Of a stretch of DNA of 64,000 bases, positions 240 to 40,368 are shown piece by piece. Both the position numbers and the translations under genes were made by a program. Source of the stretch: Cymodocea nodosa. Taxonomy: Eukaryota > Streptophyta > Magnoliopsida > Alismatales > Cymodoceaceae. The notes beneath the pieces are model-generated. The model was given only the letters and a program-made list of their open reading frames with translations, did no database searches and was not told the DNA's origin. The stretch's first letter is position 1. Each line of letters starts with the position of its first letter. The stretch lies in contig CM072340.1 of NCBI GenBank assembly GCA_036874045.1, positions 7,455,001 through 7,519,000 of the forward strand. Direction: 5' to 3'.

Positions 240-720
240 CACGTTTAGACAACTCGTTAAGTTAGAGTTTTGTTTGTATAGAGGTCACGTGAGAACTCGT
301 TAAGTTAGAGGCTTAAAGGTTAAAATAGGTCACGTGATAACTCATTAAGTTAGTGAGTAAAAGAAGAGACGAACTCGTTAAGTTAGTGTTATACACGTGG
401 TGAAATTATAAGTTACGAATGTTGTATTGTAACACGTGAGGTGCACATGTTTAACTTGTTAAGTTAACATAACTAAACGTGTTGAGTTGCTGCTATATTG
501 AACACTAAGGCAACGCGTTAGGTTAGCGTTATAAACTTAAGTTATTATTTTTGCACGTGGTAAAATTCTTTTTATAAAAACATTTGTTTATTACTGGTTC
601 ATTGAGTTATCATAACACAACGAAGATGGTTCGTTGAGATAGCATAACACCACGGACTTAGTTCGTTGAGTTAGCTACAATACTTGTCACGTGAAATGGC
701 ACATGAGGAACTCGTTAAGT
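240..720 (+). promoter_or_regulatory. U3 motif array with six CACGTG G-boxes and AACTCGTTAAGTTA repeats
   Basis: CACGTG occurs at 286, 331, 394, 433, 554 and 688. Between them the 14-mer AACTCGTTAAGTTA or close variants recur about every 50 bases, followed by CGTTGAGTTA/GAGATAGC dyads at about 598-680. CACGTG is the plant G-box bound by bZIP and bHLH factors, and CNGTTR-type sequences are MYB cores; that is established knowledge. That this array drives stress- or hormone-regulated transcription is inference. The stretch 450-559 is shared with the gypsy LTRs of elements C and D. Confidence 0.6.
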
Positions 721-1613: not shown

Positions 1614-1799
1614 TTTGTTAATAATCTTTGATATAAAATCGATACCAACTTATTTAATATCATTGCTTATTCTACCTTCCTTGTTTTTAAACGGAAATTA
1701 ATATCTGAGCATATGTTTAACTCTATTGATTTAAGGCTCAAGTTGTTTTAAAGTTTTTAGACTATTTAAAATCAAATAGGTTGAAAATTCCAAGGTAAA

Positions 1800-4058
1800 A
1801 TGGCTACTGGAAATGGTAATTTTTCTTTATATGAAGGCCAAAATCTTAATCATCCTCCTTTATTTCATGGAATACATTTTGAATATTGGAAATATAGGAT
1901 GACTGTTTTTCTTCAAAGTATAGATCATAAATTGTGGTTCATGATTTCTAAACCATATACTATGTTAACTACTCCTTTTAATACTTGGACAATTACTGAA
2001 AAAGAAAATGAAACTCTAAATGCTAAGGACTTAAATATTTTATTTTGTGCATTGAGTTATGAACAGTTCAGTAAAGTATCGGCATATAAATCTGCTTATG
2101 AGGTGTGGCATGCATTAGAAGTTTCACATGAAGGTACTTCTCAAGTTAAAGAGACAAAAATAAACATGTTGATTCATAAGTATGAACTCTTTAAGATGCA
2201 TGAAGACGAAAATATTTCTGAGATGTTTTCCAAATTTCTTGATATCATAAACTCTTTAAAATGTTTAAGAAAGAATTTTGAATAGAAGGATTTGGTGAGG
2301 AAAATTCTCAGATCCCTAAGTTCTAAATGGTCTCAGAAAGTAACATCAATTGAGGAATCACGAGATTTAAATGTTTATACTATGAATGAACTTATAGGAA
2401 ATTTAACAACTTATGAAGTTCAATTAAATGAATCACTAAGTCACAACAAACTAAAAATGATGAAAGAAATAGCCTTCGAAATTAATTCAGATTCTGATAT
2501 ATCTACTGATTCTGACGAGGATTTGATTTTGCTGACTAGGAAATTCAAGAAAGCATGGAATGCTAGGAAACAGCAAAGGAACAAAAATGATAAACCCTCA
2601 ATGTCAAAATCATTGAATGACAAGAATTCTTCATCCAGAAAGTATGTATGTTACAACTGTAAGAAACCTGGACATCTTTCTCCAGATTATCCTATGAGGA
2701 AAAATGAAAAGCAAAGTAGGACAAATCAGAAGAAGACGGCTCAGAAAACTCAGAAAAAGTTTTACAAGAAAAAGGCTTTGAAGGTCACTTGGGATGACAC
2801 ATCTGAAGAGTCTGAATCTGAGGAATTAGCATCAAAATCTTCACATTCAGAAGGAGAACAAGAGTTAGAAGACGTTGCTCATGTGTGCTTCATGGTAGAT
2901 GAGTCTGAGGTAATATCTGATCCTAAAAGTCATTTAGATTTCAACTTTGATGAATTATTATGTGCTTATCATGCATTATTACAAAAACTTAAAGTAAGTA
3001 AATTGGAAAATAAGAATATTAGAAAATCTTCATCCATTATGGAAGAAGAAAATTGTTTCCTGTCTACTACTTTAGAAAAGTTTAAATGTGATAATGAAAG
3101 TCATGCTAGAGATTTGCAAAAATTTAGATTTAATGAATGTATCTTGCATGAACAAATACAGAATATAAATGCTGAAAAATTAAAGATAGAATCTGAAAAT
3201 AAAATGTTGAGAAACAATATAAATGAACTTGAATTAGAGATAGAAAAATTAAAACTGATAGAGCAAGATTTAAATTCTACCTTTGAGAAATGGAATTTAA
3301 GTCAAACTACGTTAGACAAACTAACTAGTACCCCTACGGTGTCTTATAAATTTGGCTTAGGATTTGATTATCCTGAATATCCTGAATCTCAAGCCAATAA
3401 AGGATTTATTAGTTGCAGTTCAAGTAAATCTAAGACTAAAATTCCTTTTATTATGAAACAAGGTAATAAATATGTAGAAGTAGGTACTTCAAGGGATGAA
3501 TCATGTAGTAATAATATAAATCAATGTGATTTGTCAAATTGTACTTCTAACATGACTATAAATGTTTCTAAAAATCTTGTTTCTTGTTCTGGAAATTTAG
3601 TTTCTAATGTTTCTAAAATTTCAAACAATTGTAGTAAACTGAAAATTCAGAAACCTGAGCATGTAATTCAATACACTGGTATTAGACCAATTACTCATTC
3701 TGCATGTGATAAAACTAAAAATTCTTGTGCAGAAAAAGATTTTGTATATATGGAAAATGTTAATACAAGTACAAAATCTTGGTATGAACTTACAGAAATG
3801 TATAAGCATGACCAAAATAAATTAACATCTGATAAAAATATGTTTGGTCTTGATTATACTACATCTGAAAACAAAAAGAATGATTGCAAAAGCAATAATG
3901 CTATATGTGAGTATGAAGCTAATGATAAATCAATAGTACTTACAACTAATAAGAATATAAATGATAATGTTAAACTATTTTTAAACAAAAAGAAGAAATA
4001 TGCGTTTAATGAACTTGGTCCTCAACAACATTGGGTACCAAGAAAAAGTTTTTCTTAA
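1800..4058 (+). pseudogene. gag remnant of copia A
   Basis: The region encodes a copia-type Gag. The N-terminal part has the UBN2-like core with FEYWKYRMTVFLQS near residue 25 and the LNILFCALSYEQF section. A zinc-knuckle region (CYNCKKPGHLS) follows, then the ALKVTWDD plus Ser/Glu-rich acidic stretch seen in SIRE Gags, and a long Lys/Glu-rich coiled-coil-like tail unusually large for a copia Gag. The start codon follows a ~190-nt leader after the primer-binding site. Family function is assembly of the virus-like particle. It is broken, and the tail sequence is shared with the minus-strand fragment at 32470-33899. Confidence 0.85.
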
Positions 4059-5118: not shown

Positions 5119-6703
5119 AATGCTTAAACTTCACATAAAAAGATAAATATTATTGATGATGTTGTTCACCTCATAGATATTATATACTTATTATAAATAT
5201 CTAAAGTAATATCTAAACTGCTGCTTAAGATACTATGTATTTATTGTAAAATCATAGTAGTATCTTATTGATTTTAAGTAGTTTATCAATTTTAATGGTT
5301 TTTACGATTTTAAGTGGAAATGTAAATGAAAAACATTAAATACTTCTGACATTCTGAAATTTTGATTAAATGTTTTCTTTGAATCAAGGAAAATGCATAT
5401 GATCATGCATAAATTTGACTTAATTGATTAAACTTGTAGAATAAGATATATGTAACTCATCTTAAACTATTAATCAAAAGTATATGCCTATTGAAACTGA
5501 TTTATATTCTCAGTACAATCATAGAAGTAAAAATTGTATGAGATTTGTGTTTTATTGCATCTATATTAATGGAATACATATATACTGTGCTTAAAATGAA
5601 AAGTGCTTACAAAGGAAAAATCTTTGAGAGTTTATTGATCAGTTTGATCACGAGCCTTTTGTACTTGAGCAAATAGGTATGTAAGGATTGTTGTCCTAAA
5701 AAAGGATTCTTTAAATCTGGCAACCTAAGGTCCTGTTCAGATCTGGGATTGTTGATTGAAAGCTCATTACACGGGTACATTAGAAAGCTCTTGTATGATT
5801 CAAGCTTTTCAAACTAACTTTTAAAAGAAAATTATCAATATTTACTGTTTTGAAAAGAAAAAGTTGTTTCATTAATTACAGATATCTTTGAATCGCATAT
5901 AGTTTATACCAATATGACTACTGATTTATTGAATCAACATTAGTACTTTTGAAAATGTTTATTTGAGATACATTCTTTTATTCTCCTTGAATTAATCGAA
6001 TTGAGTTCAAAGTTGTGTTTTGATTCATATACAGTAGGAATTGATTCTGGAAATCATTTTTGATGATGTCAAGATAACGGAAGTCTCTGAAAAGAAAATG
6101 TAAAAGTATAGTTATACTTAACATCTATTGTCACTACAAGTATATTTTGTATTTTGATTGAATATATTTGAAGTATATTTGTAGGGGGAGGATTAACAAT
6201 GTCGAAAATAGATTAATATAATTTAGAATACAAATCTTAGTTAATCTGAATTAATGTCCTCTTAAAATCTTGATGAAATAAGTTAAAAAGACAAATAAAC
6301 TATTTTAGATTCAAAGGACAAAATGTTCAAATAGTTTACAATGTTCTCAAGATAATGTTAAGTTTAGCATGTGTGTTGTTTTTTGAACGTTTCAGTTGGA
6401 AGCATCTGAAAATTGTTGTGTACTAACTAGACGTTATGTTAGATAAGGTAACGTGTAAAACTACCTCTAGACAACGTTTTACTCGTTAGGTTGGTTAACT
6501 CAACGAGTTATACTTGAATATTTCGGGTACCTTGATTGAATAAACTTTATTCAATATTTATTTAATTTCTAAACCCGACTTCTCTTCACGTTGAGTTATA
6601 CGCCTACAAACCCTATTTAAACACTTATTACACGGGGACTTAGGTTATTTCTAAACTTTGTCAAGAAAATCCTTCCCACTTGTTGCTATTACAACCTACG
6701 ACG
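5119..6703 (+). other. Post-pol spacer of copia A with a block shared with the gypsy element C
   Basis: There is no credible gene here. Bases about 5320-6190 align colinearly with the reverse complement of 17690-18560 in Athila C; landmarks are TTGATTGAAAGCTCATT near 5755, ACTTGAGCAAATAGGTATGT near 5665 and TTCTTTATTCT-like text near 5968. A purine tract GTAGGGGGAGGA closes the block at 6181-6192. After it, 6420-6560 carries CTCGTTAGGTT / AACTCAACGAG dyads just before the extra ORF. Confidence 0.75.
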
Positions 6704-9464: not shown

Positions 9465-11087
9465 TGTTGAGTATTTTTGTTTTGATGATGTGTGCTGAAT
9501 GAAAATAATCATATTTGCTCAATTACTATTGCTTGTGAAAAGAAATTAAAATCATCAATTTATACAGAAAAAGCTTACTGATATAAATACTCATTTGTAT
9601 TGGATCTGAAGTTAATAACTAGTCGTTTCGTTGCATTAATTTCTCATTTAGATAAACGTTAAGTTAACATGTGTTTTTACTGAAAAGCATGATATGTTTT
9701 AATGTTATATCTTCTGTATCAGGAACATTGCACGTTTAGACAACTCGTTAAGTTAGAATTTTGTTTGTATAGAGGTCACGTGAGAACTCGTTAAGTTAGA
9801 GGCTTAAAGGTTAAAATAGGTCACGTGATAACTCGTTAAGTTAGTGAGTAAAAGAAGAGATGAACTCGTTAAGTTAGTGTTATACACGTGGTGAAATTAT
9901 AAGTTACGAATGTTGTATTGTATCACGTGAGGTGCACATGTTTAACTCGTTAAGTTAACATAACTAAACGCATTGAGTTGCTATATTGAACACTAAGGCA
10001 ACGCATTAGGTTAGCGTTATAAACTTAAGTTGTTATTTTTGCACGTGGTAAAATTCTTTTTATAAAAACATTTGTTTATTACTAGTTCGTTGAGTTATCA
10101 TAACACAACGGAGATGGTTCGTTGAGATAGCATAACACCACGGACTTAGTTCGTTGAGTTAGCTACAGTACTTGTCACGTGAAATGGCACATGAGGAACT
10201 CGTTAAGTTAGAAACGTTAAGTTATATATATACTTGTGTTACTCATTTAGTTAACATTAAAGTAACGACTTCTTATTACATTGATGAAAAACTTTTGGAC
10301 AAGAAAGTTTATTTTGCAGGAAATTTTTCAAAGATCCAAGACTGATGATTAAAGAAAATTTGAAATATAAACGTGTGTTAGAACGTATGTGTTTCGATGA
10401 AAGAAAAAGAAAAGACGTGGAGAAGTGGAAAACTGGTAGTGGTTAAACATGAAGGATATGCATGAAATGAAGATACAGTATAAAAGGCATAGAATTCTCG
10501 TTGATCAATTTATCCTTGCACACAAAAAGAAAAATCTTTTCAAAGATCAAACCATCCTTGCACACAAAACGGAAAATCTTTTCAAGGATCAAACCATCCT
10601 TGCACACCAAAAGAAAAATCTTTTTTTAGGGATCAAAAACACCTCTTCGGGAAAAATCTCTCAAGTTGAAGAAAGTTCAGTGAAGCATAAAAAGGTAAGA
10701 TTTTCGTCACTGAAGATTTGAAGTATCAGAAGAAAGCAAATTCGGTGAAGCATGAAAAGACAAGATATTCGTCATTAAAGAATTGCTGAAGAAGAAAAAG
10801 AAGAAGAAGAAAGATCTCGAACAAGGAGAAAAGTTTTAAATTCTGCAAATTAGTTTTCTCTATTTGTAGTTATAAAATTGTTTAGATGATACATGGTATC
10901 GAAATATAATTGCATCTACAATTTCTAAGGAGAATTGAATTGTATATTGTAATTCAAACCTTGAATAAAAATGATTTTATGAAAACAATGTCTCGACTTG
11001 TTTTTGAGTTTTAAAGTTTCAGTTATATTTCAGAAAATATTAAAGATACATAATTCACCTCCTCTTGTGTAGCCATACGATCCTACA
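9465..11087 (+). repeat. 3' LTR of copia A
   Basis: It starts TGTTGAGTATTTTTG directly after the polypurine tract and ends CCTACA. It has the same array of G-boxes, AACTCGTTAAGTTA units, TATA run and 42-bp tandem repeat as 1-1599. The right flank at 11088 is Athila-type sequence; the left flank needed to test a target-site duplication is outside the window. Confidence 0.93.
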
Positions 11088-15735: not shown

Positions 15736-15738
15736 TCG

Positions 15739-17568
15739 TGTTTTCCCAGCACTACACTAGAAAAACTTGGATTTGTTACTTCTATTTTTACTTAGTTAAT
15801 TTATCTTTATGCCTATTCTTTCTTTTAGAAGTAAACAAACAACCTTTAATACAATTTTGATATTAATTCCAATTTGTACTTTAACTGCAAGTGCACAATG
15901 TCTATTATATCAATGTGCAAGTACAGGTCGATCCCATAGGGAATTGCTAACGAATTTAAGAAATGTTTGATTGTGAACAATTCAAATTTATATTCAATAA
16001 GCACTCCGTTGAGTTACAGTTAACTCAACGGACTAAGTTCGTTGAGTTATGGATAACTCAACGGACTATCCTCGTGGACTTAAGTTAACTCCACGAGCCT
16101 GTCTCTTCTTTATAATACTGCTATTTACAGAGGAATTCGGCCAACCATTGGGCGATTCCACAGATTGTAAATAACATCAATTAAGCTTTTTAATGCTAGT
16201 TAACATTGGATTTATCATTATGCAATACTAACATTCAGATGATTCAAACAGTAACCATTAAAATCTTTAAGTTGTTTTGTACAAACCAATTTCAGTAAAC
16301 TATAAAATTAAAACTAACATAAAACAATCATAAAACTGATACAGATAACATTAATCACGATACAACACAAACAATACAACACTCAAATACAACATACAAA
16401 CAAAGATAAATTGTTTTTGGTATTTTTGTTTTTATGTGATGGGCGAAAGGTGAAATGTAAAGTAATTTCACTTGACAGTAAATACCTCCGACACTACTTG
16501 CAACGCGATTATACCACTGAAAATTGAACCACTTACAATTCTATCTCCTCTCCCTATAGAATCGTGAGTCCAGAATTGCAAGATGATCTCTTCTTCAGCA
16601 TATAGGCATCAACCCGAAGCCAAGGCTATAAGCTTTACGATCTCCTAAAATATGAGTCGGCGCTTGGTGAAAATGTCTTCCCTTCCCGCGACGCGATCAC
16701 TCCTCACAGTGGTTGTCAGGCACTGTGTTTGGCTCGGAATCGACCCGACATCAGACAAGTATCCTCACAGACCTCCGATGATTGGTGATTATGGTGGTGA
16801 TACGATGGTTGGTGTGATACTTCAGAGAATCACCGATACTGTCTACAGAAAGCTCGGTGCTCCTCCTCTATATACCCTAGCCATCCATCGATCACCCTTT
16901 TTCTTTTTTTCTTCTTTTCTTTTATATTTCTTCAGTGGTAATTGCTTCTGCTTGAATGATCGGTTGGATTTCCTTCCTTCAGATCAACAGCGATGATTTC
17001 TTTCTCCCTGTGCGATTGAATTCCTATGTGATACGTGCGAACGTGGTTTTTCCTTCCAACTATCTGTTCCTGCAACTACTACAGTGGCATATTAGAAAAT
17101 ATATAGTCTGTGGAGTTATAGATAACTCAACGGACTTCCTTCGTTGATTTAACTATAAAACACGTGCAAAAATAACAACTTAAGTTTATAATGCTAACCT
17201 AATGCGTTGCCTTAGTGTATTTTCATGTAACTCAACACGTGCAGTTATACTAACTTAACGAGTTATAACGTAAGTAAATCTACCAGCTCTCAACACGTGT
17301 CAGCAGTAGTTTAAACATAAAATAACATTTCGGAGAGTTACAGGTATAACTATCCGATGCTCAGATGCATTTTCAGATACTTAAGAATTTCACAGCCTGC
17401 AATTTACCGATAGTTCATAAATATACTAAATTAACATTAATTCCCCAAAATTAAGCAAATTCTTCAATTAAAGCGTATAACAGTGCAATTATAACATAAT
17501 GGCTTGATTCTCATATGATAAGCTAAATATTATGCAATTAACTATCATTTAACCGTTAATAATATGCA
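15739..17568 (-). repeat. 3' LTR of Athila C
   Basis: On the plus strand it runs from TGTTTTCCC to ATATGCA, i.e. TGCATATT..GGAAAACA in element sense. It contains a possible TATA box TATATAG on the minus strand at 16868-16874, a copia-shared U3 segment at 17161-17268, and CGTTGAGTTA dyads at 16007-16100 and 17100-17160. An antisense 114-codon frame lies at 16652-16996. A 'cccatagggaattg' landmark near 15935 matches the R/U5 text of Athila and Tat LTRs. Confidence 0.9.
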
Positions 17569-17596
17569 CTTTTTCATTCTAAACATTTCCCCCATA
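17569..17596 (-). other. Polypurine tract region of Athila C
   Basis: In element sense the text GTATGGGGGAAATG is followed by AGAATGAAAAAG and then the LTR. It is preceded by CTAAGGGACTAGCAAAATTT, which resembles the conserved pre-PPT text of Athila/Tat elements. Confidence 0.75.
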
Positions 17597-19410
17597 CCTA
17601 AATTTTGCTAGTCCCTTAGCAAACTAAGATCTAATTAATTGGTCTTTCAAAAAGTGCTAGAATTAATTCTTCTTCTTTCTTTTTTCTTCTGTTCAGCATA
17701 AGAATATATATTCTGTATGTTTCAGTAATCAACTTGCAAATATACTTAGAATATATGTAAATTACATACAAAGTATATCATCTTCATATAGGTGTTAATT
17801 ATATTATCATTTGTTCTTCTTTTCATCATCTGTAATCTTGAATTTTCCAATAAGTTTTCTAGAAGAAATTTCAACAACATACGAATCAAAGTACAATCCA
17901 ATTCAATCTGATTAAGACAAGTAGAATAAAGAATTGTATTTCCATTAAACAACTTCAAAAGTCAATTCCAGATTCATATTTCAGCAATTCTAGATAACAG
18001 AAAATATATTCGATTCATAAGATATCTGTATTTCACAAAACACTTATATCTTTTCAGAACAGTATATATTTTTTTCTTTTTCTTTTTTTTTCTCTTTTTT
18101 TTTGTGTACTTTAAAAGTTAATTTGACAAGCTTGAATCATGCAAGAGCTTTCTAATGTACCCATGTAACAAGCTTTCAGTCAACAATCCCAGATCTGATC
18201 AAGATCTTAGGTTGCCAGATTTTTAGAGTCCTTTCTTAGGTCAACAATCCTTACATACCTATCTGCTCAAGTACAAAAGGCTCGTGATCAAACAAGTCAA
18301 TAAACTCTCAATATTTTTTTTTTCTTTTTTTTTCTAAAAATAAATGCACACACAAAACAAAGCATTAATCACATACTGTATATGCACGTATTTCATTAAT
18401 ACAGATGCTGTAAAACACCAATCTCATATAATCCTGCTTCTATCATTTACTAAAGATATGAATCCATAACAATAAGCTCATACTTTATCTGTAGTTTAAT
18501 AAGATCTACACATAAATCATTCTACAAGTTCAATCAGTCAAAGTAAATGTATCTTTCATCATATGTGTTTCATTTAATCTAGAATTCACATCTCAGTTCC
18601 TTCAGGACTTCAGATAATTTTCTAATTAAGCATTAAATATTCTGATTTCATTTTAAAATCGTGAAACTGTTAAACTCATGAAATTCAGAAAAATCATAAG
18701 ATACTATATCTAGATTTACATAAATAATAAATTCTATAGCATCTTCTATAGCCTTCTAAATATAACATTCAAGCAATTTATAAAAATTTTACAGTCTCAA
18801 TTATCGGATAGTTACAGCAATGTTCATAAAAATTTTCAATTTCCTCAAAACTTTGTAGTACCATTTTAATTCCTTTAATTAACAAACTTACATGGCTGTT
18901 ACTTTAATTACCTCCCCCCCATACCTACATTTTGCATTGTCCTCAATGTAAAAGATTTGACAATAAGTACAGTAATTGTAGCAGGCATGAATAAAGTTTT
19001 GTTTGATTTAAAATTCAGGATAAGTAATTGGTTGCATACCTTGTTCCATTTGTATCTCTTTCTGTATATTCCGATTTTTTATTCTGAAAAACTTTTCATT
19101 CCCAGATAAACACAGAATATAAAACAAGATAACATTATTAATAAATCAGTGTCTTGTGTGGAACCCAGGCTCCTATGCCTTTGGTGGCTCACAAGCAAGC
19201 CAGTTGGTTTCCCAAAACAAATACCAACAAACTGGATTGATATTTTGTTTTGTTTGTTTTTTGGTTTTTTTTTTATAAAATGAACATGAAAAGCTTCAAA
19301 ATTCTTTTTTTTTTCTAAAAATAAATGCAGAATACATAACATTAAACACACAAAATCACAGCTTAAGAACATGATTGAAAAGTAGAAACAAATGGAATAA
19401 ATGTATCAGT
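17597..19410 (-). other. 3' non-coding region of Athila C with a second polypurine motif and a copia-shared block
   Basis: No gene is seen. Bases 17690-18560 match copia A 5320-6190 in reverse. At 18911-18950 the element-sense text ACATTGAGGACAATGC is followed by TATGGGGGGGAGG, the classic Athila/Tat 'gagGACAATG' polypurine motif, about 1.35 kb before the LTR. T-rich tracts lie at 18068-18105 and 18306-18335. Confidence 0.75.
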
Positions 19411-21969: not shown

Positions 21970-22070
21970 CTGCAATGAAAATTCTTGGATAGGTGTTCTT
22001 ACTAATCACTTAGTGCTTAGAGAACGAGTCCATGTGCTCATAAATAAATAACAGAAGATTAATTACATAC
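21970..22070 (-). other. Candidate intron directly upstream of the gag domain
   Basis: The element-sense donor GGTATGTAATTAATC and acceptor AATTTTCATTGCAG bracket 101 bases with good plant consensus. The donor-side sequence is also present in Athila D near 47670. Confidence 0.5.
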
Positions 22071-22991: not shown

Positions 22992-25219
22992 TTAATCTTT
23001 ATGCCTAAGTTCATCTACTTCCTTCTGGAGTTTTTCTAATTGCTACTCTAATTGATTTATCCTCTCTACTACTCCTGCAATTTCTCCAGAAGGTACAGCT
23101 AATTCTGCAACTACAAAATTTCTGTATTCTTCCACTGAAATGGATCTAGATCTTATCCTTTTTGATGTCCATTTAGTGAAATCAATACTATCCACCACCA
23201 GCAGTGGAATCAAATCTCCATAAAATAATTTCTTCTTCACTATTTTCAGCTTGGAGATAAAAACTACAGACCAATTTATTTGGATCTTATTTACAACTGC
23301 ATACGTGGCTCATTTGACAAATTGACTTAATTCTATGTCATGGCCCTATCGTTGATAGACATTCTTAATCAGAATGTTAGCTACCATGTGTGCTTTACCA
23401 TTTAAATGCTTCAATCTGTTTAATAATGGCACACCAGGATTGATAGCTAAACAATCCTTAATTTGCTGCTCAGTCCATTCAACTGCAGTTGTATCTTCCA
23501 AAATTTTTGTTCCTTCATTCTTTAAACCAAATATGTTGTGGAGAAGCTCTAGTGTTATCTGTACATCAGCTTCCTCCACGTTTGAAATTAATCCTCCTTC
23601 TCCTTCTCTTAAATTTGCATAGAAACAGGGCACTAAATTCTCATATACTGCATGCCCTCTATCTTGAGATATAAATTGCAGTAGACCTTGGAATTCAAAT
23701 AGATCTTTGATTTCTTGCATTCCATCCCAATTTACTGGTCTACTGTAAATAATATCGTAACCCCTTATTTCTTGGTATTTGGTATAAGCTTCCTGACTAC
23801 AAAAATGTACTTCATTCAAAATTGTTGTTTCAGTCGGGTCAGGAAGGTGACTTTGTTGCTCTAGAGGGGTTTGCTCTTGCTCTTCCTCCAGCATAGGCTG
23901 CATTTGGACATTCTCTTCAGATTCCTTAAATTTTGCTTTTGCTTCTGTTTGTGGTGGTGAGCCGATAGAACTCTCCACTCTGTCTTGAATTCTTTCCATA
24001 ATTTGCTGAAGAGTTTCTTGCTCTTCAATGGAATCTGTGAAATTATTTTTGTCCAAATGGCTTCTTTCAACCTTTTCATTTTCTACTCTTTCTTCTTCCT
24101 CCTGACTACCAATCTGTTCTGTTACTGTTCTTTCTGATTCTGTAATAGATTGGGATGGAGTCTCGGGCAATTCAGTTTTTGCCCTAATTTCTGTTTCTTC
24201 TTGTACAGGCTGTAAACTAATTTCAGCCTGATTTTTTTCTTTCTTTGCTCCTCCTGCTCCTCCTCAGATTCGGATAGTAGGTTAATAAAAATCTGCTCCA
24301 CAGGCCCTATAAAAATTGGTACTTCAGATTTAATTTCTTTATAATCAGGCACTTTTTCTTTTTCTTTCTTTTTTCTGATTAGTTGTGTCTGTTCTTCCTC
24401 TTCATCTTCTGAAATTAAATCTACAAAAATAGGCTCTGTAGGCTTTCGAACCACAGGTACTGGCTCTTCCTGTTTAATTCTTCCAATAATTGCTAGTCTC
24501 GAAGGACCAGCTTCAGCTTCTTTTGCAGCATCTCTAACAACAGTTCTGGTAGTAGCTTCTTGATGCTGTTCCACTTTAATTTTATATTGGGCTTTCAACT
24601 TTTCTACAGCCCTCTTTTTCTACAGTACATCAAACACCAGGTGTGCTTTAGCCACTACCAAATCTTCTAATTCTCCTTGGTTTTTTCCAACTTGAACCAG
24701 TTCTGCAAATTCTCTTATTTCTTCTTCAGTCGAAGGCCCCATCATTTCTGCTCATGCCAATGGCTTAAATGGTGGAACTGAAGGTCCAGACTGCTGCTCC
24801 TCAAGAACAGGTCTTTCAGTAGTTGGTTCCTCCCGTTCTTCAGTTGCCTCTTCATTTGCTTTCCTTTCTTGCTCCCAGATCACCCGTTTAGCTTGTCTAC
24901 AGATTCATCTTTTGAACTAGAGTCGGGACTTACGCTGGATTAATTCTAGGGCAACTTCATTACTTGGCCTTATTTGTCTTTCCTTGCTTACAGCTATTTC
25001 TATTGCTATTCTGATTCGTGTTTCCATTATTTGAGGTATTTGTATATCCATATCTACTAAATCTCTTCTAAACTTGAAAAGTTCTGATTCTACTTTCTGT
25101 AGCTCTTTCTCTCTTGTCGTATTTCTGATCTTCTACCGCGTGTGCCACTCTTCTGATTCCTTCAGAAATTCTGATGTATCAACAACATCTTCCTAGAATT
25201 CAAGCGTCATCTTCCTCAT
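22992..25219 (-). pseudogene. Extra (env-position) ORF of Athila C
   Basis: The ATG at 25219 opens MRKMTLEFWE and TSEFLKE text, then an Arg/Lys-rich part, a long Glu-rich linker (VEQHQEA, FVDLISEDEEEEQ) and, from about 23830, a globular domain with FCSQEAYTKYQEIRGYDI, LFEFQGLLQFISQ, PCFYANLREGEGG, ELLHNIFGLKNEG, KAHMVANIL and IQINW. It ends in a short coiled coil. Its place after integrase is where Athila elements carry an env-like ORF, but the domain here looks like the 'putative plant transposon protein' family, and no clear signal peptide or membrane segment is visible. It is homologous to the copia A extra ORF. It is broken at several places. Confidence 0.75.
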
Positions 25220-25851: not shown

Positions 25852-28800
25852 CTAAGTAAAACTCGAGTAGTCCTCTACTCTGACTTCTTCTATAATTCCA
25901 AAGGAGCTTTTTGGTGTTTTCAGAATAGGTTTAAGTCTTTGTCCATTTACTTTAAATATATTCTAATTTTTAGGATTTTCAATTTCAATAGCTCCATAAA
26001 GATAAACATTTCGAACTATGTAAAGTCCAACCCATCTAGATCTTAATTTTCCTAGATGGTTATGGAGTCTAGCCATATAAAGATATACTTCTTGTCCTAT
26101 TTCAAAGTTTTTAGGAATAATTTGTCTATCATGCCAGAATTTAATTTTCTCTTTTTCTCTTACAGTCTTTGAATAAGCTTCATTTCTAAATTCTTCTAAT
26201 TCAATTAGTTGCATTTTCCTATTTTCAGCAGCTTAATTTAAATTAGTGTTCAGAGTTTTTAATGCCCAATAAGCTTTATGTTCTATTTCAGCAAGTAAAT
26301 GACAACTTTTTCCATATACTAGCCTAAAAGGTGACATACCTAAGCTCGTTTTATAAGCAGTTCTATAAGCCCAAAGTGCATCAATCAATCTATTAGCTCA
26401 ATCTGTTCTAGTAGGATTTACTACTTTTTCCAAGATTAATTTAATTTGTTTGTTTGCACTTTCAACTTGTCCACTTGTTTGTAGATGATATGATGTTTCA
26501 ATTTTGTGGTTTATTCCATATTTCTTCATTAAGGCTTCAAAACTTCTATTACAGAAATGAGTTCCTCTATCACTGATAATAGCTTTAGGTATTCCAAATC
26601 TGGCAAATATATTTGTTCTTATAAATTGTATTACCACTTTGTTATCGTTAGTTTTTGTAGGAATAGCTTCTATCCATTTAGATACATAATCCACTCCCAA
26701 CAATATGTAATTAAATTGATTAGATATAGGAAATGGACCCATAAAATCTATTCCCCACACATCAAAGATTTCAACCTCAACAATAGGATTAAGAGGCATC
26801 ATATTCCTCTTTGATATTCTTCCTATTTGTTGATATCTTAAACAACTTAAGCAATATTTATGAGCATCTTTGAATAGTGTTGGCCAATAAAACCCACATT
26901 GTAGAATTTTTGCAGCAGTTTTCCCTGAACCAAAATGTCCTCCACAAGCTTGGTCATGACAGAAAGATAATATGCTCGAATATTCAGTTTCTGGAACACA
27001 CCTCCTTAAAACCAGATCAGGACATTTCTTAAATAAGTAAGGGTCTTCCCAATAGTAATATTTTACTCTTGAGAAAAACAATTTCTTATCCTGTCTATTC
27101 CAATCCTTAGGTGTTAAACCAGTAACTAAGTAATTAACTATGTCTGCATACCAAGGCATTGTGTTGATGGTCATTAATTGTTCATCAGGAAAATTATCCT
27201 TAATTTCAATATTTAATTTTTCTATTTGTAATCTTGATAAATGATCTGCTACTACATTCTCACAACCTTTTTATCTTTAATTTCTAGATCGAATTCTTGC
27301 AATAATAATATCCATCGGATCAATCTAGGTTTAGTTTCTTTTTTCTTTATTAGATGTTTTAGAGCTGAATGATCCGTGTATACTATTACTTTAGCTCCAA
27401 TCAAATATGATCTAAACTTTTCTAAAGCAAACACAACAGCTAATAATTCTTTTTCAGTAGTTATGTAATTAACTTGAGCATCATTTAAGGTTTTGCTTGC
27501 ATAATGAATCACTCTAGGAGATTTTTCTATTTTCTGTCCTAACACTGCTCCTACAGCTAAATCAAAAGCATCACACATTAATTCAAATGGATGGTTCCAA
27601 TTAGGTGCTTGAATTATAGGAGTTGAAATTAAGCTAGTCTTAAGTCTAAAAAATGCTTTCTTGCAATTTTTATCAAAGTTAAATGGAACATCTTTTAATA
27701 GATTAGTTAAAGGTCTAGCTATCTTGCTAAAGTCTTTAATAAATCTTCTATAAAAACCAGCATGTCCTAGAAATGATCTAATATCTTTTACTGATTTAGG
27801 TTCTGGTAGATTAGAAATTACTTCTATTTTAGCTTTATCTACTTCCAACCCTTTTTTAGAAACAACATGCCCTAAGACTATTCCTTGTTTAACCATGAAG
27901 TGACATTTTTCCCAATTTAAAACCAGATTTTTTTCCACACAGCGTTTTCATATTTGATCTAAATTGCTTAAACACACTTCATATGAGTTGCCATATACAG
28001 TAAAATCATCCATAAATATTTCTAAAAATTCATTAGTCATTCCAGTAAATATGCCCTACACACACCTTTGAAAGGTAACTAGTGCATTGCATAATCCGAA
28101 TGGCATTCTTTTAAAAGCATAAGTTCCATTAGGACAAGTGAAAGTTGTTTTCTCTTGATCCTCTAATGCTACTGGAATTTGATTATACCCTGAATACCCG
28201 TCTAGGAAACAAAAAATATTCTTGCCCTGCTAATTTTTCCAGCATTTGATCTATAAAAGGTAAGGAAAAATGATCTTTCCTAGTCACAGCATTCAGCTTT
28301 CTATAGTCTATACATACTCTCCAGCCTGATTGAATTCTAGTAGGTATCAAGTCTTGACTTTTATTCCTAATAACTATTAATCCTGATTTCTTGGGAACTA
28401 CATGGATTGGACTAACCCACGAGCTATCAAAAATCGGATATATTATATCATTATCTAACCATTTAACTATTTCCTTCCTGACTACTTCCTTAAGGTTTGG
28501 ATTTAATCTCCTCTTAGGAATTCTAACAGGTTTAGCATTCTCTTCTAAATATATGTGGTGATAGCATAAAGTTGAACTTAACCCTTTTATATCAATCATA
28601 GTCCATCCTATTGCTTCTTTATAACTTTTTATTACATCTTTTAATTTAGCTATTTGATCCTCTTTCAAATCTGAAGCAATAATGATCGAACAAGTCTGTT
28701 TATCTTCCAAAAATATATAGGTTAATTCAGGAGGTAAAGGTTTTAATTCTAAATGCTGCCCATCAGAAGCTAGAGCTCCTAATTGAACATCATCATTTTT

Positions 28801-30606: not shown

Positions 30607-30618
30607 AAAACTTGTTCG

Positions 30619-32444
30619 TGTTTTCCCAACACTACACTAGAAAAACTTGGATTTGTTACTTCTATTTTTACTTAGTTAATTTATCTTTATGCCTATTCTT
30701 TCTTTTAGAAGTAAACAAACAACCTTTAATACAATTTAGATATTAATTCCAATTTGTACTTTAACTGCAAGTGCACAATGTCTATTGTATCAGTGTGCAA
30801 GTACAGGTCGATCCCACAGGGAATTGCTGACGAATTTAAGAAATGTTTGATTGTGAACAATTCAAATTTATATTCAATAAGCACTCCGTTGAGTTACAGT
30901 TAACTCAATAGACTAAGTTTGTTGAGTTATGGATAACTCAACAGACTATCCTCATGGACTTAAGTTAACTCCACGAGCCTGTCTCTTCTTTATAATACTA
31001 CTATTTACAGAGAAATTCGGCCAACCATTGGGTGATTCCACAGATTGTAAATAACATCAATTAAGCTTTTTAATGCTAGTTAACATTGGATTTATCATTA
31101 TGCAATACTAACATTCAAATGATTCAAACAGTAACCATTCAAATCTTTAAGTTGTTTTGTACAAACCAATTTTAGTAAACTGTAAAATTAAAACTAACAT
31201 AAAACAATCATAAAACTGATACAGATAACATTAATCACGATACAACACAAACAATACAACACTCAAATACAACATACAAACAAAGATAAATTGTTTTTGG
31301 TATTTTTGTTTTTATGTGATGGGCGAAAGGTGAAATGTAAAGTAATTTCACTTGACAGTAAATACTTCCGACACTACTTGCAACGCGATTACACCACTGA
31401 AAATTGAACCACTTACAATTCTGTCTCCTCTCCCTATAGAATCGCGAGTCCAGAATTGCAAGATGATCTCCTCTTCAACATACAGGCATCAACCCGAAGT
31501 CAAGGCTAAAAGCTTTACGATCTCCTAAAATATGAGTCGGCACTTGGTGAAAATGTCATCCCTTCCCGCGACGCGATCACTCCTCACAGTGGTTGTCAGG
31601 CACTGTATTTGGCTCGAAATCGACCCGACATCAGGCAAGTATCCTCACAGACCTCCGATGATTGGTGATTATGGTGGTGATACGATGGTTGGTGTGATAC
31701 TTCGGAGAATCGCTAATACTGTCTGCAGAAAGCTCGGTGCTCCTCCTCTGTATACACTAGCCATCCATCGATCACCCTTTTTCTTTTTTTCTTCTTTTCT
31801 TTTATATTTCTTCAGTGGTAACTGCTTCTGCTTGAATGATCGGTTGGATTTCCTTCCTTCAGATCAACGGCGATGATTTCTTTCTCCCTACGTGATTGAA
31901 TTCCTATGTGATACGTGCGAATGTAGTTTTTCCTTCCAACTGTCTGTTCCTGCAGCCGCTACAATGGTATATTAGAAAATATATAGTTCGTGGAGTTACA
32001 AATAACTCAACGGACTTCTTTCGTTGATTTAACTATAAAACACGTGCAAAATTAACAACTTAAGTTTATAACGCTAACCTAATGCGTTGCCTTAGTGTAT
32101 TTTCATGTAACTCAACGTGTGCAGTTATACTAACTTAACGAGTTATAACGTAAGTAAATCTACCAGCTCTCAACACGTGTCAACAGTAGTTTAAACATAA
32201 AATAACATTTTAGAGAGTTACAGGTATAACTATCCGATGCTCAGATGCATTTTCAGATACTTAAGAATTTCACAGCCTGCAATTTACCAATAGTTCATAA
32301 ATGTACTAAATTAACATTAATTCCCCAAAATTAAGCAGATTCTTCAATTAAAGCGTATAACAGTGCAGTTATAACATAATGGCTTAATTCTCATATGATA
32401 AGCTAAATATTATGCAATTAACCATCATTTAACCGTTAATAATA
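30619..32444 (-). repeat. 5' LTR of Athila C
   Basis: It matches 15739-17568 base for base over most of its length, including the copia-shared segment (32041-32148) and the antisense 114-codon frame (31532-31876). Its outermost few bases differ from the expected ATGCA end, and the adjoining sequence is copia gag in reverse. Confidence 0.9.
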
Positions 32445-33899: not shown

Positions 33900-34098
33900 T
33901 TTACCTTAGATTTTTCAACCTATTTGATTTTAAACAATCTAAAAATTTTAAAACAACTTGAGCCTTAAATCAATAGAGTTAAACGTATGCTCAGATATTA
34001 ATTTCCGTTTAAAAACAAGGAAGGTAGAATAAGCAATGATATTAAATAAGTTGGTATCGATTTTATATCAAAGATTATTAACAAAGCTCTGATACCAC

Positions 34099-35477
34099 TA
34101 ATTTGCGGAATTTAAAACTTTTCTCCTTGTTTGAGATCTTTCTTCTTCTTCTTTTTCTTCTTCAGCAATTCTTCAGTGACGAATATCTTGTCTTTTCATG
34201 CTTCACCGAATTTGCTTTCTTTTGATACTTCAAATCTTTTGTGACGAAAATCTTACCTTTTTATGCTTCACTGAACTTTCTTCCACTTGAGAGATTTTCC
34301 CCGAGAAGTGGTGTTTTTGATCCCTGAAAAAGATTTTTCTTTTGGTGTGTAGGGATGGTTTGATCCTTGAAAAGATTTTTCGTTTTGTGTGCAAGGATGG
34401 TTTGATCCACGAGAATTCTATGCCTTTTATATTGTATCTTCATTTCATGCATATCCTTCACGTTTAACCACCACCAGTTTTCCACTTCTCCACGTCTTTT
34501 CTTTTTCCTTCATCAAAACACACACGTTCTAACCCACATTTATATTTCAAATTTTCTTTAATCATCAGTCTTGGATCTCTGAAAAATTTCCTACAAAATA
34601 AACTTTCTCGTCCAAAAGCTTTTCATCAATGTAATAAGAAGTCGTTACTTTAATGTTAACTAAACGAGTAACACAAGTATATATATAACTTAGCATTTCT
34701 AACTTAACGAGTTCCTCATGTGTCATTTCACGTGACAAGTATTGTAGCTAACTCAATGAACTAAGTCCGTGGTGTTATGCTATCTCAACGAACCATCTCT
34801 GTTGTGTTATGATAACTCAACAAACCATTTCCGTTGTGTTATGATAACTCAACGTACCAGTAATAAACAAATGTTTTTATAATAAGAATTTTACCACGTG
34901 CAAAAATAACAACTTAAGTTTATAACGCTAACCTAACGCGTTGCCTTAGTGTTCAATATAGCAACTCAACGCGTTTAGTTATGTTAACTTAACAAGTTAA
35001 ACATGTGCATCTCACGTGATACAATACAACATTCGTAACTTATAATTTCACCACGTGTATAACACTAACTTAACGAGTTCGTCTCTTCTTTTACCCACTA
35101 ACTTAGCGAGTTATCACGTGACCTATTTTAACCTTTAAGCCTCTAACTTAACAAGTTCTCACATGACCTCTATACAAACAAAACTCTAACTTAACGAGTT
35201 GTCTAAACGTGCAGTGTTCATGATACAGAACATATAACATTAAAACATATCATGCTTTTCAATAAAAACACATGTTAAATTAACGTTTAGCTAAATGAGA
35301 AATTAATGCAACGAAACGACTAGTTATTAACTTCAGATCCAATACAGACAAGTATTTTTATCAGTAAGCTTTTTCTGTATTAATTGATGATTTTAATTTC
35401 TTTTCACAAGCAATAGTAATTGAGCAAATATGATTATTTTCATTCAGCACACATCATCAAAACAAAAATACTCAACA
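34099..35477 (-). repeat. LTR of copia E (incomplete)
   Basis: The outer end reads CTCAACA on the plus strand (TGTTGAG in element sense). It contains the AACTCGTTAAGTTA array, G-boxes, the CGTTGAGTTA dyads at 34740-34860 and about two units of the 42-bp leader repeat at 34320-34400. Confidence 0.88.
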
Positions 35478-38024
35478 GTTTAGTCACATGTTTTGCAGGT
35501 ACAAAAACTCGAAGAGATAAAGGATAAGTGTTTGAGTTTTTACAGGACTTAAAGGATAAATGTTCGACTAAATTGAAAACTTAGAAGATAATCTATAAGA
35601 CTCCAGGAAGATAAAGCTTCGATGAATCTTTGAAGTGGAGATCGTGGAAATTCAAATTGTTAGTGGAGAAAGTGGAAATTAAAATAGAAAGTAATTTGGG
35701 TTAAAGAGAAAATTAGAATGTGGATTATGGATTATGGATTGTGGATCAAGTGGATGAACATGCTGAACGTGAAAGACAACAGAGTTCGACTACTAATAGA
35801 GAGTACGAGCTACATTACAACAAAGGATCCCAATCTCAAAAACCAAGTCTGAATATTCAATCTGGATCTGTTGAGTATTTTGTTTTGATGATGTGTGCTA
35901 AATGGAAATAATCATATTTGCTAAATTACTATTGCTTGTGAAAAGAAATTAAAATCATCAATGAATATAGAAAAAGTTTACTGATATAAATACTTGTCTG
36001 TATTGGATTTGAAATTATACTGTTAAATAACTAGTCGTTTCATTGCATTAATTTCTCATGTAACTAAACGTTAAGTTAACGTGTGTTTTTTTATTGAAAG
36101 GCATGATATGTTTTAAAGTTATATCTTCTGTATCATGTATAGTGCACGTTTAGACAACCCGTTAAGTTAGAGTTTTTTTCGTATAGAGATCATGTGAGAA
36201 CTCGTTAAGTAAAAGGCTTAAAGGTTAAAATAGGTCACGTGAGAACTCGTTAAGTTAGTGAGTAAAAGAAGAGACAAACTCGTTAAGTTAGTGTTATACA
36301 CGTGGTGAAATTATAAGTTACGAATGTTATATTGTATCGTGTGAGGTGCACATGTTTAACTCATTAAGTTAACATAACTAAACGCATTGAGTTGCTATAT
36401 TGAACACTAAGGCAACGCGTTAGGTTAGCGTTATAAACTTAAGTTGTTATTTTTGCACGTGGTAAAATTCTTATTATAAAAACATTTGTTTATTGCTGAA
36501 TCGGTGAGTTAAAGATTTTCGAAGACTTACAATCATAACTATCCGAAAGGTAACTTAAGTCATGTTTTTAGGTCTTGACACATGTCTCACTAGTTTTATG
36601 AGAAAAAGAGTTTTTCGGTGACTTACAACCGTAACTATCCGAAACTTAAACTGTTTTCGGTGAGTTATCGTTTAACCTTCCGAAAGAAAGGTTAAGCTGG
36701 TTCGTTGAGTTATCTATAGTACTAGTCACATGAATTATCACATGAAGAACTCGTTAAACGTTAAGTTAATATCTACTTGTGTTACTCGTTTAGTTAACAT
36801 TAAAGTAACGACTTCTTATTATACTAATGAAAAAATTTTGGAAGAGAAAGTTTATTTTGCAGGAAATTTTTCAAGGATCCAAGACCGATGATTAAAGTAA
36901 ATTCGAAATATAAACGTGGGTCAGAACGTGTGTGTTTCGATGAAGGAAAAAGAAAAGACATGAAGAAGTGGAAAAGTGGTAGTGATTAAACGTGGAGGAT
37001 ATGCATGAAGTTAACATACAGTATAAAAGGCATAGAATTCTCATTAATCAAACTATCCTTGCACACAAAACGAAAATCTTTTCAAGGATCAAACTATCCC
37101 TGCACACCAAAAGAAAAATCTTTTCAGGGATCAAAAACACTCTTCGGGGAAAATCTCTCAAGTAGAAGAAAATTCAGTGAAGCATAAAAAGGTATTATTT
37201 ATGTCACTGAAGATTTAAAGTATCAGAAGAAAGCAAATTTGGTGAAGCAGAGAAAGACAAGATATTCGTCACTGAAGAATTACTGAAGAAGAAAAAAAAG
37301 AAGAAGAAAGATCTTAGATAGGGAGAAATGTTTTAAATTTTGCAAATTAGTTTTCTCTATTTGTAGTTATGAAATTGTATAGATGAAACATGGTATCGAA
37401 ATATAATTGCATCTACAATTTTTTAGGAGAATTGAATTGTATATTGTAATTGAAACCTTGAATAAAAAATGATTTTACGAAAACAATGTCTCGACTTGTT
37501 TTTGAGTTTTAAAGTTTTAATTATATTTCAGAAAATATTGAAAAACACAATTCACCCCCACTCTTGTGTAGCCATACGATCCTACAGGATCCCTAACTAA
37601 AAAGTTAAGTTTGAATATTTATATTTTGAAAAATTCTCCAACATTAGAAGAAGTTCAAAATTCCAAACAATTTCAGAAAAGGAGCTACAAACGTAAGAAG
37701 TCTGGAAATTTGACAATTGGAGAAGAAGAGATATAGAAGCTGAGCAAAGAGAAAGAAAGAATTGTGTGCATAAAGATCAGGTTATATACAATTCAAAATT
37801 AGTTTTGAATAAGAGCTTTATTTTCCTATTTAAATTGTATATCGAACATTACTGTATCAAAACCGTCAAGAAGGGAATTGAGCTGAAAAGATATTATAAA
37901 TTCTGTCTTGAAATAAAAGAATAGAATTTCATTTACAAGTGTTTTGTGCTCTTGTTTTATCTGCTAGTATTTAATTACTAAAGACACAATTCACCCCCCC
38001 TCTTATGATATAGACGATCCTACA
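35478..38024 (+). repeat. Diverged SIRE-type LTR remnant, split by solo LTR J
   Basis: The right end (37985-38024) reads ACAATTCACCCCCC and GACGATCCTACA, the conserved copia LTR terminus of this window. The left part (35478-35863) contains TTTTGCAGG as in the leader of the copia A LTR. It matches none of the other LTRs closely, so it is probably an older relative. No gene is seen. Confidence 0.55.
35869..37586 (+). repeat. Solo LTR J of the copia A family
   Basis: It runs TGTTGAG..CCTACA, with a perfect 5-bp duplication GGATC at 35864-35868 and 37587-37591, so it is a complete solo LTR left by LTR-LTR recombination. At 1718 bp it is about 95 bp longer than the copia A LTRs. Positions 36495-36720 carry CGGTGAGTTA / TAACTATCCG dyads where copia A has CGTTGAGTTA / GAGATAGC dyads. 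Confidence 0.93.
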
Positions 38025-38412: not shown

Positions 38413-40368
38413 TAATATTAATGGTTAAATGATGGTTAATTGCATAATATTTAGCTTATCATGCGAGAATTAAGCCATTATGTTATAATTGCACTGTTAG
38501 ATGCTTTAATAAAAGAATCTACATAATTCTAGGGAATTAATTTTAATTTAGTACATTTCTTAACTGTCGATAAATTGCACACTATGAAATTCTTAAGTAT
38601 CCGAATTTTCTGTTATTTCGGAGAGTTATGTTTAATGTACTAGACAGTTATGTTTTAAATGCTTAAAGAATATTTTATTATTTCTTAGATTACACGTGTT
38701 GAAACTACAATGCATGACTTAAGTGGATTTTCGGAAGGTTATCTATAACTATCTGAAATGCATCTGAGCATCGGATAGTAGGTTCGTAAGTGTCCGAAAT
38801 ATTTGAACTTGTTAAGATAGAATTATGTACATATTGAATTTAAATGCTTTAGTATATCACGTGAGATGCACATGTTTAACTAGTTAAGTTAGCATAATTG
38901 TACACGTTGAGTTACATGAATACACACAAAGGTAACGCGTTATGTTAGCGGCTTATTTCTTTATTGCACGTGTTTTATAGTTAAATCAACAAAGTAAGTC
39001 CGTTGAGTTATCTATAACTCCACGGACCATTTATTTTCTAATATGCCACTGTAGCGGTTACAGAAACAGGACATTCGAAGGAAAACCACGATTGCACATA
39101 TCACATAGGAAATCGCTTGTGGAAGGAAGAAGAAATCACCATCGTTGATATAAACAAAGGAAATCCCACCGATCATCGAAGCAAAAGCAGTTACTACTAA
39201 GAAATATAAAGGACAAGGAGAAAAGAATGTACGGGGGTGGCCAGTGTGTGTGTAGAGGAGGAGGACCATGCTAACTACAGGCAGCGACGAAAGTTCCTTG
39301 AAGTTCCACACTACCATCACCACCACCACCATAATCACCAACCATCGGAGGTCTATGAGGATACATTCCTGATGTCGAATCAATTCCAAGCCAAACACAG
39401 TGCCTGACAACCACTGTGAAGAGTGATCGCATCGTGGGAAGGGAAGTCATTTTCACCAAGCACCGACTCATATCTCAGGAGATCGTAAAACTTCTAGCCT
39501 TGGTTTCAAGTTGATGCCAGTATGCTGAAGAGGAGATCAACTTGCAATTCTAGACTCGCGATTCTATAGGGCGAGGAGACAGAATTGTAAGTGGTTAAAT
39601 TTTCAGTGGTGTAATCGAGTTGCATGTAGTGATGGAAGTTTTTACTATCAATAGAGATTACTTTTACATTTCACCTTTCGCCCATTTTCATGATCATATA
39701 AAAACAAAAATACCAAAAACAACTTATCTATGTTTATAGTTAGTATTGGAGTGTTGTATTATTTGTTTTGTATCCTGATTATTGTTATCATTGTCAGTGT
39801 TTGGAATGTTTCATGTTTGTTTAAAATTAAAATAAAAAAAAATAGAAAATTATTTTACAGTTTACTGAAATCGAATTGTTCCTGATACTTAAAGATTTTA
39901 ATGGTTACTATTTGAAATATCTGAATGTTAGTGTTGCCAAATGATAAATTTAATATTAACTAGCATTAAAGAGCTTAATTAATGTTATTTACAATCTGTG
40001 GAACCGCTCAATGGTTAATTGAATTCCTTTGTAAATAGCAGTATTAATCAGGATAGATAACTTTGTTGAGTTACTTCAATTTCACGAGGTTAGTTCGTTG
40101 AGTTAGCTATAACTCAACGAAGTGCTTACTGAAGATATAAATTTCATTATTAAAAATAGAACAGTACACAATTCTTCCTCAATTCTCTATGGGATCGACT
40201 TGTACTTGCACACAAATATAATATACACTATGCACTTGCAGTTAAAATATAAATTGGAATTAATATCTAATTTGTGTGAAAGATGGTTTGTTGACTTCTA
40301 ATAAGGAATTAATGATAAGCATAAAGATAAATTAACTAAGTTACAAATAGAAGTTAGCAAGGCAATCA
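38413..40368 (+). repeat. LTR of Athila D
   Basis: It starts TGCATAATATTAATGG and ends GGCAATCA before the primer-binding site, and is clearly related to the Athila C LTRs though substantially diverged. It carries CGGAAGGTTA / TAACTATC dyads (38640-38800), a copia-shared segment (38859-38972) and the R/U5 landmark ATGGGATCGACTTGTACTTG near 40190. Confidence 0.85.

What the first reader, a model, noticed from the sequence alone, without database searches (positions are those of the whole stretch)
9941..10046. About 110 bp of U3 promoter nearly the same in copia A-family LTRs and Athila LTRs
The text ACACTAAGGCAACGC, TTAGGTTAGC, AAACTTAAGTTGTTAT and GCACGTG occurs in the same order in copia A (450-559, 9941-10046), copia E and solo J (36357-36461), in both Athila C LTRs (17161-17268 and 32041-32148, reverse) and, more worn, in Athila D (38859-38972), which also keeps CACGTGAGATGCACATG. 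LTRs of different superfamilies are not expected to share sequence. This points to exchange of a promoter module, perhaps by template switching between co-packaged RNAs.
Basis: seen in the sequence. Interest (0 to 1): 0.88.

Follow-up and report, generated by a model that had tools for sequence, protein, structure and literature searches.

The report
Copia LTR segment inside Athila LTRs
In one plant genome, a short stretch of the control region of one kind of jumping gene (copia) has been copied into an unrelated kind (Athila, gypsy type), and the resulting hybrids appear to have multiplied, so control sequence can cross between two superfamilies that are not expected to share any.

Summary
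About 105 bp of U3 is shared, ungapped at 85.7%, between copia A-family and Athila C LTRs, and more weakly with Athila D. It is not one uniform module. Between 75 copia and 8 Athila C rows, all 13 differing columns lie in the first 49 and none in the last 53. So an old shared segment carries a more recent transfer of about 55-70 bp ending at TTGCACGTG. Exact-marker counts genome-wide (middle/right flank): copia/copia 3137, Athila/Athila 449, copia/Athila 132, Athila/copia 0. Of 100 listed hybrids (of 132), 28 form 14 same-strand pairs at LTR-LTR spacing, with 0 opposite-strand pairs, so hybrid elements most likely transposed. Some Athila copies keep an older form, pointing to copia as donor. 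It is not a MITE: no inverted ends, no duplications, no third context in 82 rows. Template switching is possible but not shown; one element with differing LTRs suggests that DNA-level conversion also acts there. Also shared: a 0.8-kb non-coding block (89% in its 200-bp core) and an env-like ORF.

The parts
9466..11087 (+). copia A 3' LTR (5' LTR 1-1600, cut by the window edge)
   Evidence: 1-1600 vs 9492-11088 95.5%; TGTTGAG..CCTACA ends, PPT-like AAAAAGGGGGAGAT before, PBS-like TGGTATCAGAGC after the 5' LTR (tRNA-iMet match recalled)
9941..10047 (+). shared U3 segment in copia A 3' LTR
9990..10047 (+). recently transferred right half (no difference between commonest letters of copia and Athila C rows)
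450..559 (+). shared U3 segment in copia A 5' LTR
34895..35001 (-). shared U3 segment in copia E LTR (34097-35478 minus)
36355..36461 (+). shared U3 segment in copia J LTR (35868-37586)
15736..17585 (-). Athila C 3' LTR
30613..32444 (-). Athila C 5' LTR, start truncated
17161..17265 (-). shared segment in Athila C 3' LTR; right half about 17161-17218
32041..32145 (-). shared segment in Athila C 5' LTR
38805..38972 (+). older, worn form in Athila D LTR (38392-about 40400); lacks the copia-type right half
9742..10209 (+). array of boxes AACTYGTTAAGTT (6) and CACGTG (6) around the segment
   Evidence: LTR positions 277-732 are box starts
5396..6181 (+). non-coding block X in copia A internal region; core 5616-5815 is 89% to Athila C
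   Evidence: pol end, linker and first 105 bp of X recur at 98-100% in 40 of 40 scored places
17737..18565 (-). block X just upstream of Athila C 3' LTR
   Evidence: also in L013, L014, L022, L079
7745..8782 (+). env-like ORF of copia A (PF20167, 23 bits, below the 45-bit cut-off)
23346..24263 (-). env-like ORF of Athila C, 33% aa identity to that of copia A; no Pfam family at E 0.01
1785..2285 (+). copia-type gag (PF14223), superfamily marker of A
26398..27947 (-). Ty3/gypsy-type RNase H and integrase of Athila C (PF17917, PF17919, PF17921, PF00665), two ORFs

Best explanation
A short piece of copia U3 was copied, without reciprocal exchange, into the U3 of an Athila (Ty3/gypsy) LTR at a place where the two already shared an older, diverged segment. 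Seen directly: a copia-type piece inside Athila flanks (read in full in L019, and by markers on both sides in 46 of 64 listed hybrids); ends at strings common to both parents (ACGCGTTGAGTT on the left in the L019 class, TTGCACGTG on the right); hybrid copies paired at LTR spacing; Athila copies with an older version. Inferred: hybrid elements replicated as such; recombination among Athila copies then made the shorter variants (Athila C itself, and the copy in L049); at least one separate longer transfer made L013. Molecular route, inferred: patch-like ectopic conversion between genomic copies slightly more likely (about 0.5) than double template switching during reverse transcription (about 0.4). 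Function, inferred: the piece lies in an array of repeat boxes upstream of the likely TATA box and probably carries host-factor sites, so it was kept because it tolerates or helps expression.
For: Four-class exact counts 3137/132/449/0, all backwards controls 0. 14 same-strand hybrid pairs at 9-17.5 kb vs 0 opposite among 100 listed of 132. 46 of 64 listed hybrids also carry the exact Athila upstream marker; that marker with the copia middle occurs 215 times. 13 of 49 vs 0 of 53 differing columns, 0 of 500 column shuffles as extreme. L019, a 5' LTR 94% Athila C overall around a segment 95% copia-type; L013, an Athila 3' LTR with a copia tract of about 320-350 bp. Athila haplotype series. A diverged copia LTR (L032, flanks 74% and 85%) already has the copia form.
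Against: The piece is short and each class could go back to one founder, so 132 and 449 are copies, not events. Only exact markers were counted; mutated copies fall out of every class, and L013 itself falls in the copia/copia class. 18 of 64 listed hybrids lack the exact Athila upstream marker, and 54 of 100 listed Athila-upstream/copia-middle places lack the exact Athila right flank; these 100 (of 215) give 12 same-strand and 2 opposite-strand pairs. The pairs were not read as sequence. No phylogeny longer than about 105 bp supports direction. The mate LTR of L013 was not found. In L019 the two LTRs differ in type, so not every hybrid LTR arose before integration. Expression was not examined.
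Confidence: 0.82

Rival explanations
1. Template switching between co-packaged copia and Athila RNAs during reverse transcription.
For: Hybrid copies occur as pairs at LTR spacing, as expected if the change was made before integration; junctions at 9-12 bp shared strings (by inspection); recombination during transposition bursts is documented within one family (PMC5668417, passages seen).
Against: Needs co-packaging of RNAs of different superfamilies and two switches within about 70 bp; conversion of one LTR followed by transposition also gives matched pairs; L019 has discordant LTRs.
Confidence: 0.4
2. Ectopic gene conversion (short-patch, synthesis-dependent) between integrated copies, followed by retrotransposition of converted Athila copies.
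For: Patch-like non-reciprocal tract; donor class more numerous than recipient by exact markers (3137 vs 449); one element with a copia-type 5' LTR and an older-type 3' LTR in one target sequence; dense nesting in the window.
Against: Conversion between sequences with only 9-12 bp of identity at the ends is unusual, although the older shared segment supplies more homology; the L019 discordance could be conversion among Athila copies only; no mixed hybrid/Athila-middle pair was found among 27 x 98 listed places on C1-C4.
Confidence: 0.5
3. An independent repeat (MITE or other mobile piece) inserted separately into each LTR family.
For: None found.
Against: No inverted ends (11 of 25 matches; 570 of 2000 shuffles reach that) and no flanking duplication of 3-12 bp in A3 or C3; the 82 rows examined all touch copia or Athila LTRs (71 of 2823 places plus 8 chosen loci); Athila classes have different left ends.
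Confidence: 0.03
4. Common ancestry or selection on binding sites alone, without exchange.
For: An older, diverged version exists in Athila D, L011, L079 and L080, so part of the similarity is old; CACGTG and the AACTYGTTAAGTT boxes are above shuffle expectation in these LTRs.
Against: 0 of 53 differing columns beside 13 of 49 and a copia-type segment inside an otherwise Athila LTR need recent transfer; the rest of the A and C LTRs align only in short repeat boxes (longest 79 bp at 77%).
Confidence: 0.05

Closest known systems
Inter-element recombination in centromeric retrotransposons of grasses (PMC4079200; passages seen)
   Same: Recombinant elements arise and then proliferate as new subgroups; template switching and illegitimate recombination are both discussed there.
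   Different: Partners there are variants or subfamilies of one retrotransposon family; here they are Ty1/copia and Ty3/gypsy, and only a short U3 segment moved.
ONSEN recombination during transposition bursts (PMC5668417; passages seen)
   Same: Hybrid LTRs made in replication cycles.
   Different: Intra-family, and observed experimentally; here inter-superfamily and inferred from old copies.
Modular U3 evolution in the Tnt1 group (PMC1838419; passages seen)
   Same: U3 evolves as a separable module.
   Different: Within one copia group; the passages seen name no foreign superfamily as source.
Sharing of non-coding regulatory sequences between endogenous pararetrovirus species (PMC5491270; abstract seen)
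   Same: Region-specific recombination homogenises non-coding control sequence between different elements of one host.
   Different: Pararetroviruses, with a proposed partnership between autonomous and non-autonomous species.
Sirevirus repeated motifs (PMC2829016; abstract and two sections seen)
   Same: Palindromic repeat boxes in the upper half of U3, upstream of TATA, often in env-containing copia elements.
   Different: Boxes here lack the CGG-CCG core reported for 12 of the 13 elements listed there; that paper compares Ty1/copia elements and calls the motif Sirevirus-specific, while here a segment holding such boxes sits in a gypsy element.

Membership tests
Ty1/copia (element A) | copia-type gag | tested here: met
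   PF14223 E 3.9e-16
Ty1/copia (element A) | RVT_2-type reverse transcriptase | tested here: inconclusive
   The window copy of A lacks most of pol; its remnant 4387-5119 is 77% to the part of the copia B pol ORF that follows its RVT_2 domain (PF07727 E 3e-76).
Sirevirus (element A) | palindromic repeat boxes in U3 with CGG-CCG core | tested here: inconclusive
   Six AACTYGTTAAGTT boxes starting at LTR 277-732 vs 0.00 expected; palindromic by inspection; no CGG-CCG core in them.
Sirevirus (element A) | env-like gene downstream of pol (present in many, not all) | tested here: met
   ORF 7745-8782
Sirevirus (element A) | multiple polypurine tracts before the 3' LTR | not tested
   One PPT-like stretch seen; copies not counted.
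Ty3/gypsy (element C) | RNase H then integrase with H2C2 and rve, aspartic protease | tested here: met
   PF17917, PF17919, PF17921, PF00665, PF13650; the ORF 28183-28800 in the RT place matched no Pfam family at E 0.01.
Athila lineage (elements C, D) | env-like ORF after pol and Athila position in an RT tree | tested here: inconclusive
MITE | terminal inverted repeats and target duplications, independent insertion sites | tested here: not met
Template-switch recombinant | hybrid made in cDNA before integration | not testable with these tools
   Paired hybrid copies are compatible, discordant L019 is not.

The most novel reading that the evidence does not exclude
In this genome env-bearing copia and Athila elements draw on one common pool of non-coding cassettes: the U3 box segment, internal block X, and possibly the 0.3-kb block behind copia B pol and in Athila D. 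They trade these repeatedly across superfamilies, so control regions evolve as a reticulate pool while the polymerase genes stay separate.
Probability: 0.4. Interest if true: 0.87.

Novelty: new variant of a known kind. Interest (0 to 1): 0.68.

Why it matters
LTRs of different superfamilies are treated as unrelated, and LTR families are classified on that footing. A short control segment that crossed from copia to gypsy and then multiplied would show that regulatory sequence can spread horizontally between element lineages inside one genome. It gives a concrete system, with markers and copy classes, for asking whether such crossing happens in particles or in chromosomes, and whether it brings two lineages under the same host control. 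It also warns that short LTR hits can misassign family.

Tried and rejected
A protein search with the copia A env-like ORF had 1373 candidates and scored none at E<=1e-5. Rfam listed nothing in the window at the gathering thresholds. No LTR with a copia tract was found as 5' mate of L013 in the 9.9 kb fetched upstream (L080; best match to the L013 LTR 74.7% over 1216 bp; the stretch nearest to L013 was not wholly read). Counts not obtained because the genome search stayed busy: copia upstream + Athila downstream, copies of the copia env region, and DNA searches with the Athila C and D segments. Considered and rejected: MITE; one uniform 110-bp module; copia A receiving the right half from Athila (reciprocal class 0; older Athila form). 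Eight paper searches in the open PMC library listed no title or abstract start that reports LTR exchange between copia and gypsy; subscription journals are mostly missing there. Beyond listings I saw only passages, abstracts or sections of PMC2829016, PMC1950507, PMC4079200, PMC5491270, PMC1838419 and PMC5668417.

Rows dropped or counted twice: the 82 rows are 80 distinct places (L016 and L017 hold the same two), and L003 is the window's own copy. Searches left out L003, L017 and occurrences too near locus ends, and added six window copies; one search also left out L013 and L019, the two recombinants. L012 is cut off inside the segment. One search printed no segment for L012 and L024 (no anchor), and for L013 a second stretch without it.

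Full report
What is there. The window is G000:C12:7455001-7519000 of a 374.6-Mb, 28-contig genome. It is a nest of LTR retrotransposons. Element A has a copia-type gag (PF14223) and LTRs of about 1.6 kb. Most of its pol is gone; the remnant is 77% to the part of the copia B pol ORF that follows the RVT_2 domain. Element C has an aspartic protease and Ty3/gypsy-type RNase H and integrase, though its RT-place ORF matched no Pfam family at E 0.01, and LTRs of about 1.85 kb. D is a relative of C in which the pol region does not align.

The shared segment. A 9943-10047 aligns without gaps to both C LTRs at 85.7%. Elsewhere A and C LTRs share only short repeat boxes, the longest 79 bp at 77%. The best A-C local score is 123 bits, against at most 31 in 100 shuffles. 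The core 25-mer occurs 2823 times, and 0 times read backwards.

Context. I examined 82 rows from 78 loci: 8 loci chosen as best matches to A (one is the window's own copy), and 70 loci covering the first 71 of 2823 places, all on contig C1. The 82 rows are 80 distinct places. Counts (upstream/downstream/segment) were copia/copia/copia-type 70, Athila/Athila/Athila-type 6, Athila/Athila/copia-type 2, no upstream call/Athila/Athila-type 1, no upstream call/copia/copia-type 2, and copia/no downstream call/copia-type 1. No third family appeared.

Two ages in one segment. Between the commonest letters of 75 copia and 8 Athila C rows, 13 of the first 49 columns differ and 0 of the last 53 (best-cut Fisher p 2.8e-5; 0 of 500 column shuffles as extreme). 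The right half therefore moved recently and the left half is old. Athila copies show a series. Window D, L011 and one LTR in L079 have an older right half (GCGGCTTATTTCTTTATTGCA), a second LTR in L079 a variant of it (GCAGCTTATTTTTTTATTGCA), and L080 a fuller old form. L049 is Athila-type up to AAGGTAACGC and copia-type after it. Athila C is copia-type from about AAGGC on. L019 is copia-type from GCTATATT on. L013 carries about 320-350 bp of copia U3 with an internal gap relative to A. Except in L013, where copia sequence runs further right, the copia-type tract ends at TTGCACGTG (one letter changed in L016), a string present in copia and in Athila D. The left border of the L019 class lies at ACGCGTTGAGTT, present in the commoner copia form and in L079. 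These borders were read by eye.

Genome-wide classes. Middle marker (copia GCTATATTGAACAC or Athila ACATGAAAATACAC) against right flank (copia GCACGTGGTAAAATT or Athila GCACGTGTTTTATAG): copia/copia 3137, copia/Athila 132, Athila/Athila 449, Athila/copia 0; every backwards control was 0. L013 itself counts as copia/copia by these markers. Of the 64 hybrids listed on C1 to C11:2087488, 46 also have the exact Athila upstream marker and 18 do not. That marker with the copia middle occurs 215 times; of the 100 listed, 46 have the exact Athila right flank and 54 do not. I could not tell mutated copies from other recombinants there.

Hybrids probably transposed. Of the 132 hybrids 100 places were listed. 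They contain 14 same-strand pairs 9-17.5 kb apart and no opposite-strand pair. The 100 listed of 449 Athila-middle copies give 21 and 3; mixed hybrid/Athila-middle pairs were 0 on C1-C4 (27 x 98 places). The 100 listed of 215 Athila-upstream/copia-middle places give 12 and 2. Pairs at this spacing are what two LTRs of one element give.

A counter-example to a purely pre-integration origin. L019 is a 5' LTR whose 3' mate is in L079: both lie in one target pol sequence; against the window's C pol 12 target bases are missing, and I saw no duplication. The LTRs are identical at 1674 of 1777 aligned bases (90% with gaps counted), but the 5' one has the copia-type segment and the 3' one the older type. 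LTRs are normally identical when made (also stated in a passage of PMC1950507), so one of the two was probably changed after integration. The donor of that change may have been another Athila copy.

Direction. Some Athila copies keep an older form, a diverged copia LTR (L032) already has the copia form, and the reciprocal class is 0. Copia is therefore the likely donor of the recent tract. The direction of the older sharing is unknown.

Where it lies. In A the segment is at LTR 478-582, among six AACTYGTTAAGTT boxes (0.00 expected) and six CACGTG (0.26 expected) that start at 277-732. Of five TATA-like matches I take the one at 1014 as the likely TATA box. This layout resembles the palindromic repeated motifs that Bousios et al. 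describe in Sirevirus U3 (PMC2829016, abstract and two sections), though without their CGG-CCG core. A control function is inferred, not tested.

More is shared than U3. Block X (A 5396-6181, C 18565-17737) is 71% identical overall and 178/200 over four adjoining windows at 5616-5815; the longest stop-free piece listed in it is 71 aa. It belongs to both families: the pol end, linker and first 105 bp of X recur nearly full-length at 98-100% in 40 of 40 scored places of 2206 candidates, the window's own among them, and X stands before the 3' LTR in L013, L014, L022 and L079 on the Athila side. The order differs: before the env-like ORF in copia, after it in Athila. The env-like ORFs are 33% identical over 186 aa, which may be much older; their Pfam support is weak (PF20167 at 23 bits, below its cut-off, in A; none in C or D).

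Conclusion. Cross-superfamily transfer of a short U3 piece, followed by amplification, is well supported (0.82). The route is open: conversion about 0.5, template switching about 0.4.

Noticed in passing
window 5396-6181 and 17737-18565: Non-coding block X shared by copia A and Athila C, 89% in a 200-bp core that contains AGGTATGTAAGG, which looks like a splice donor; possibly part of env mRNA splicing (inference).
   Followed up: partly
window 36511-36700: Copia J LTRs carry a block absent from A, with CCGAAA/GTGAGTTA boxes like those in the 128-bp tandem repeats of copia F and G LTRs (48365-48816, 54714-55166); L013 switches back to Athila at a similar border.
   Followed up: partly
window 15173-15487, 61778-62127 and 38490-38858: About 0.3 kb behind copia B pol (two copies) is 77% identical to part of the Athila D LTR near its start: a second possible copia-Athila exchange.
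   Followed up: partly
window 60293-61777: LTR of the F/G kind without internal region, flanked by GAAAG on both sides, inserted in the older block behind a copia pol.
   Followed up: no
G000:C6:9885975-9891563: Five hybrid segments within 6 kb, three on minus and two on plus strand: a local array or inverted duplication.
   Followed up: no
window 21253-22005 minus: A gag ORF (PF03732) lies downstream of the env-like ORF in C, an odd order that may be a nested or rearranged piece.
   Followed up: no
L019 and L079: Athila element with no visible target duplication and 12 target bases missing against the window's C pol.
   Followed up: partly
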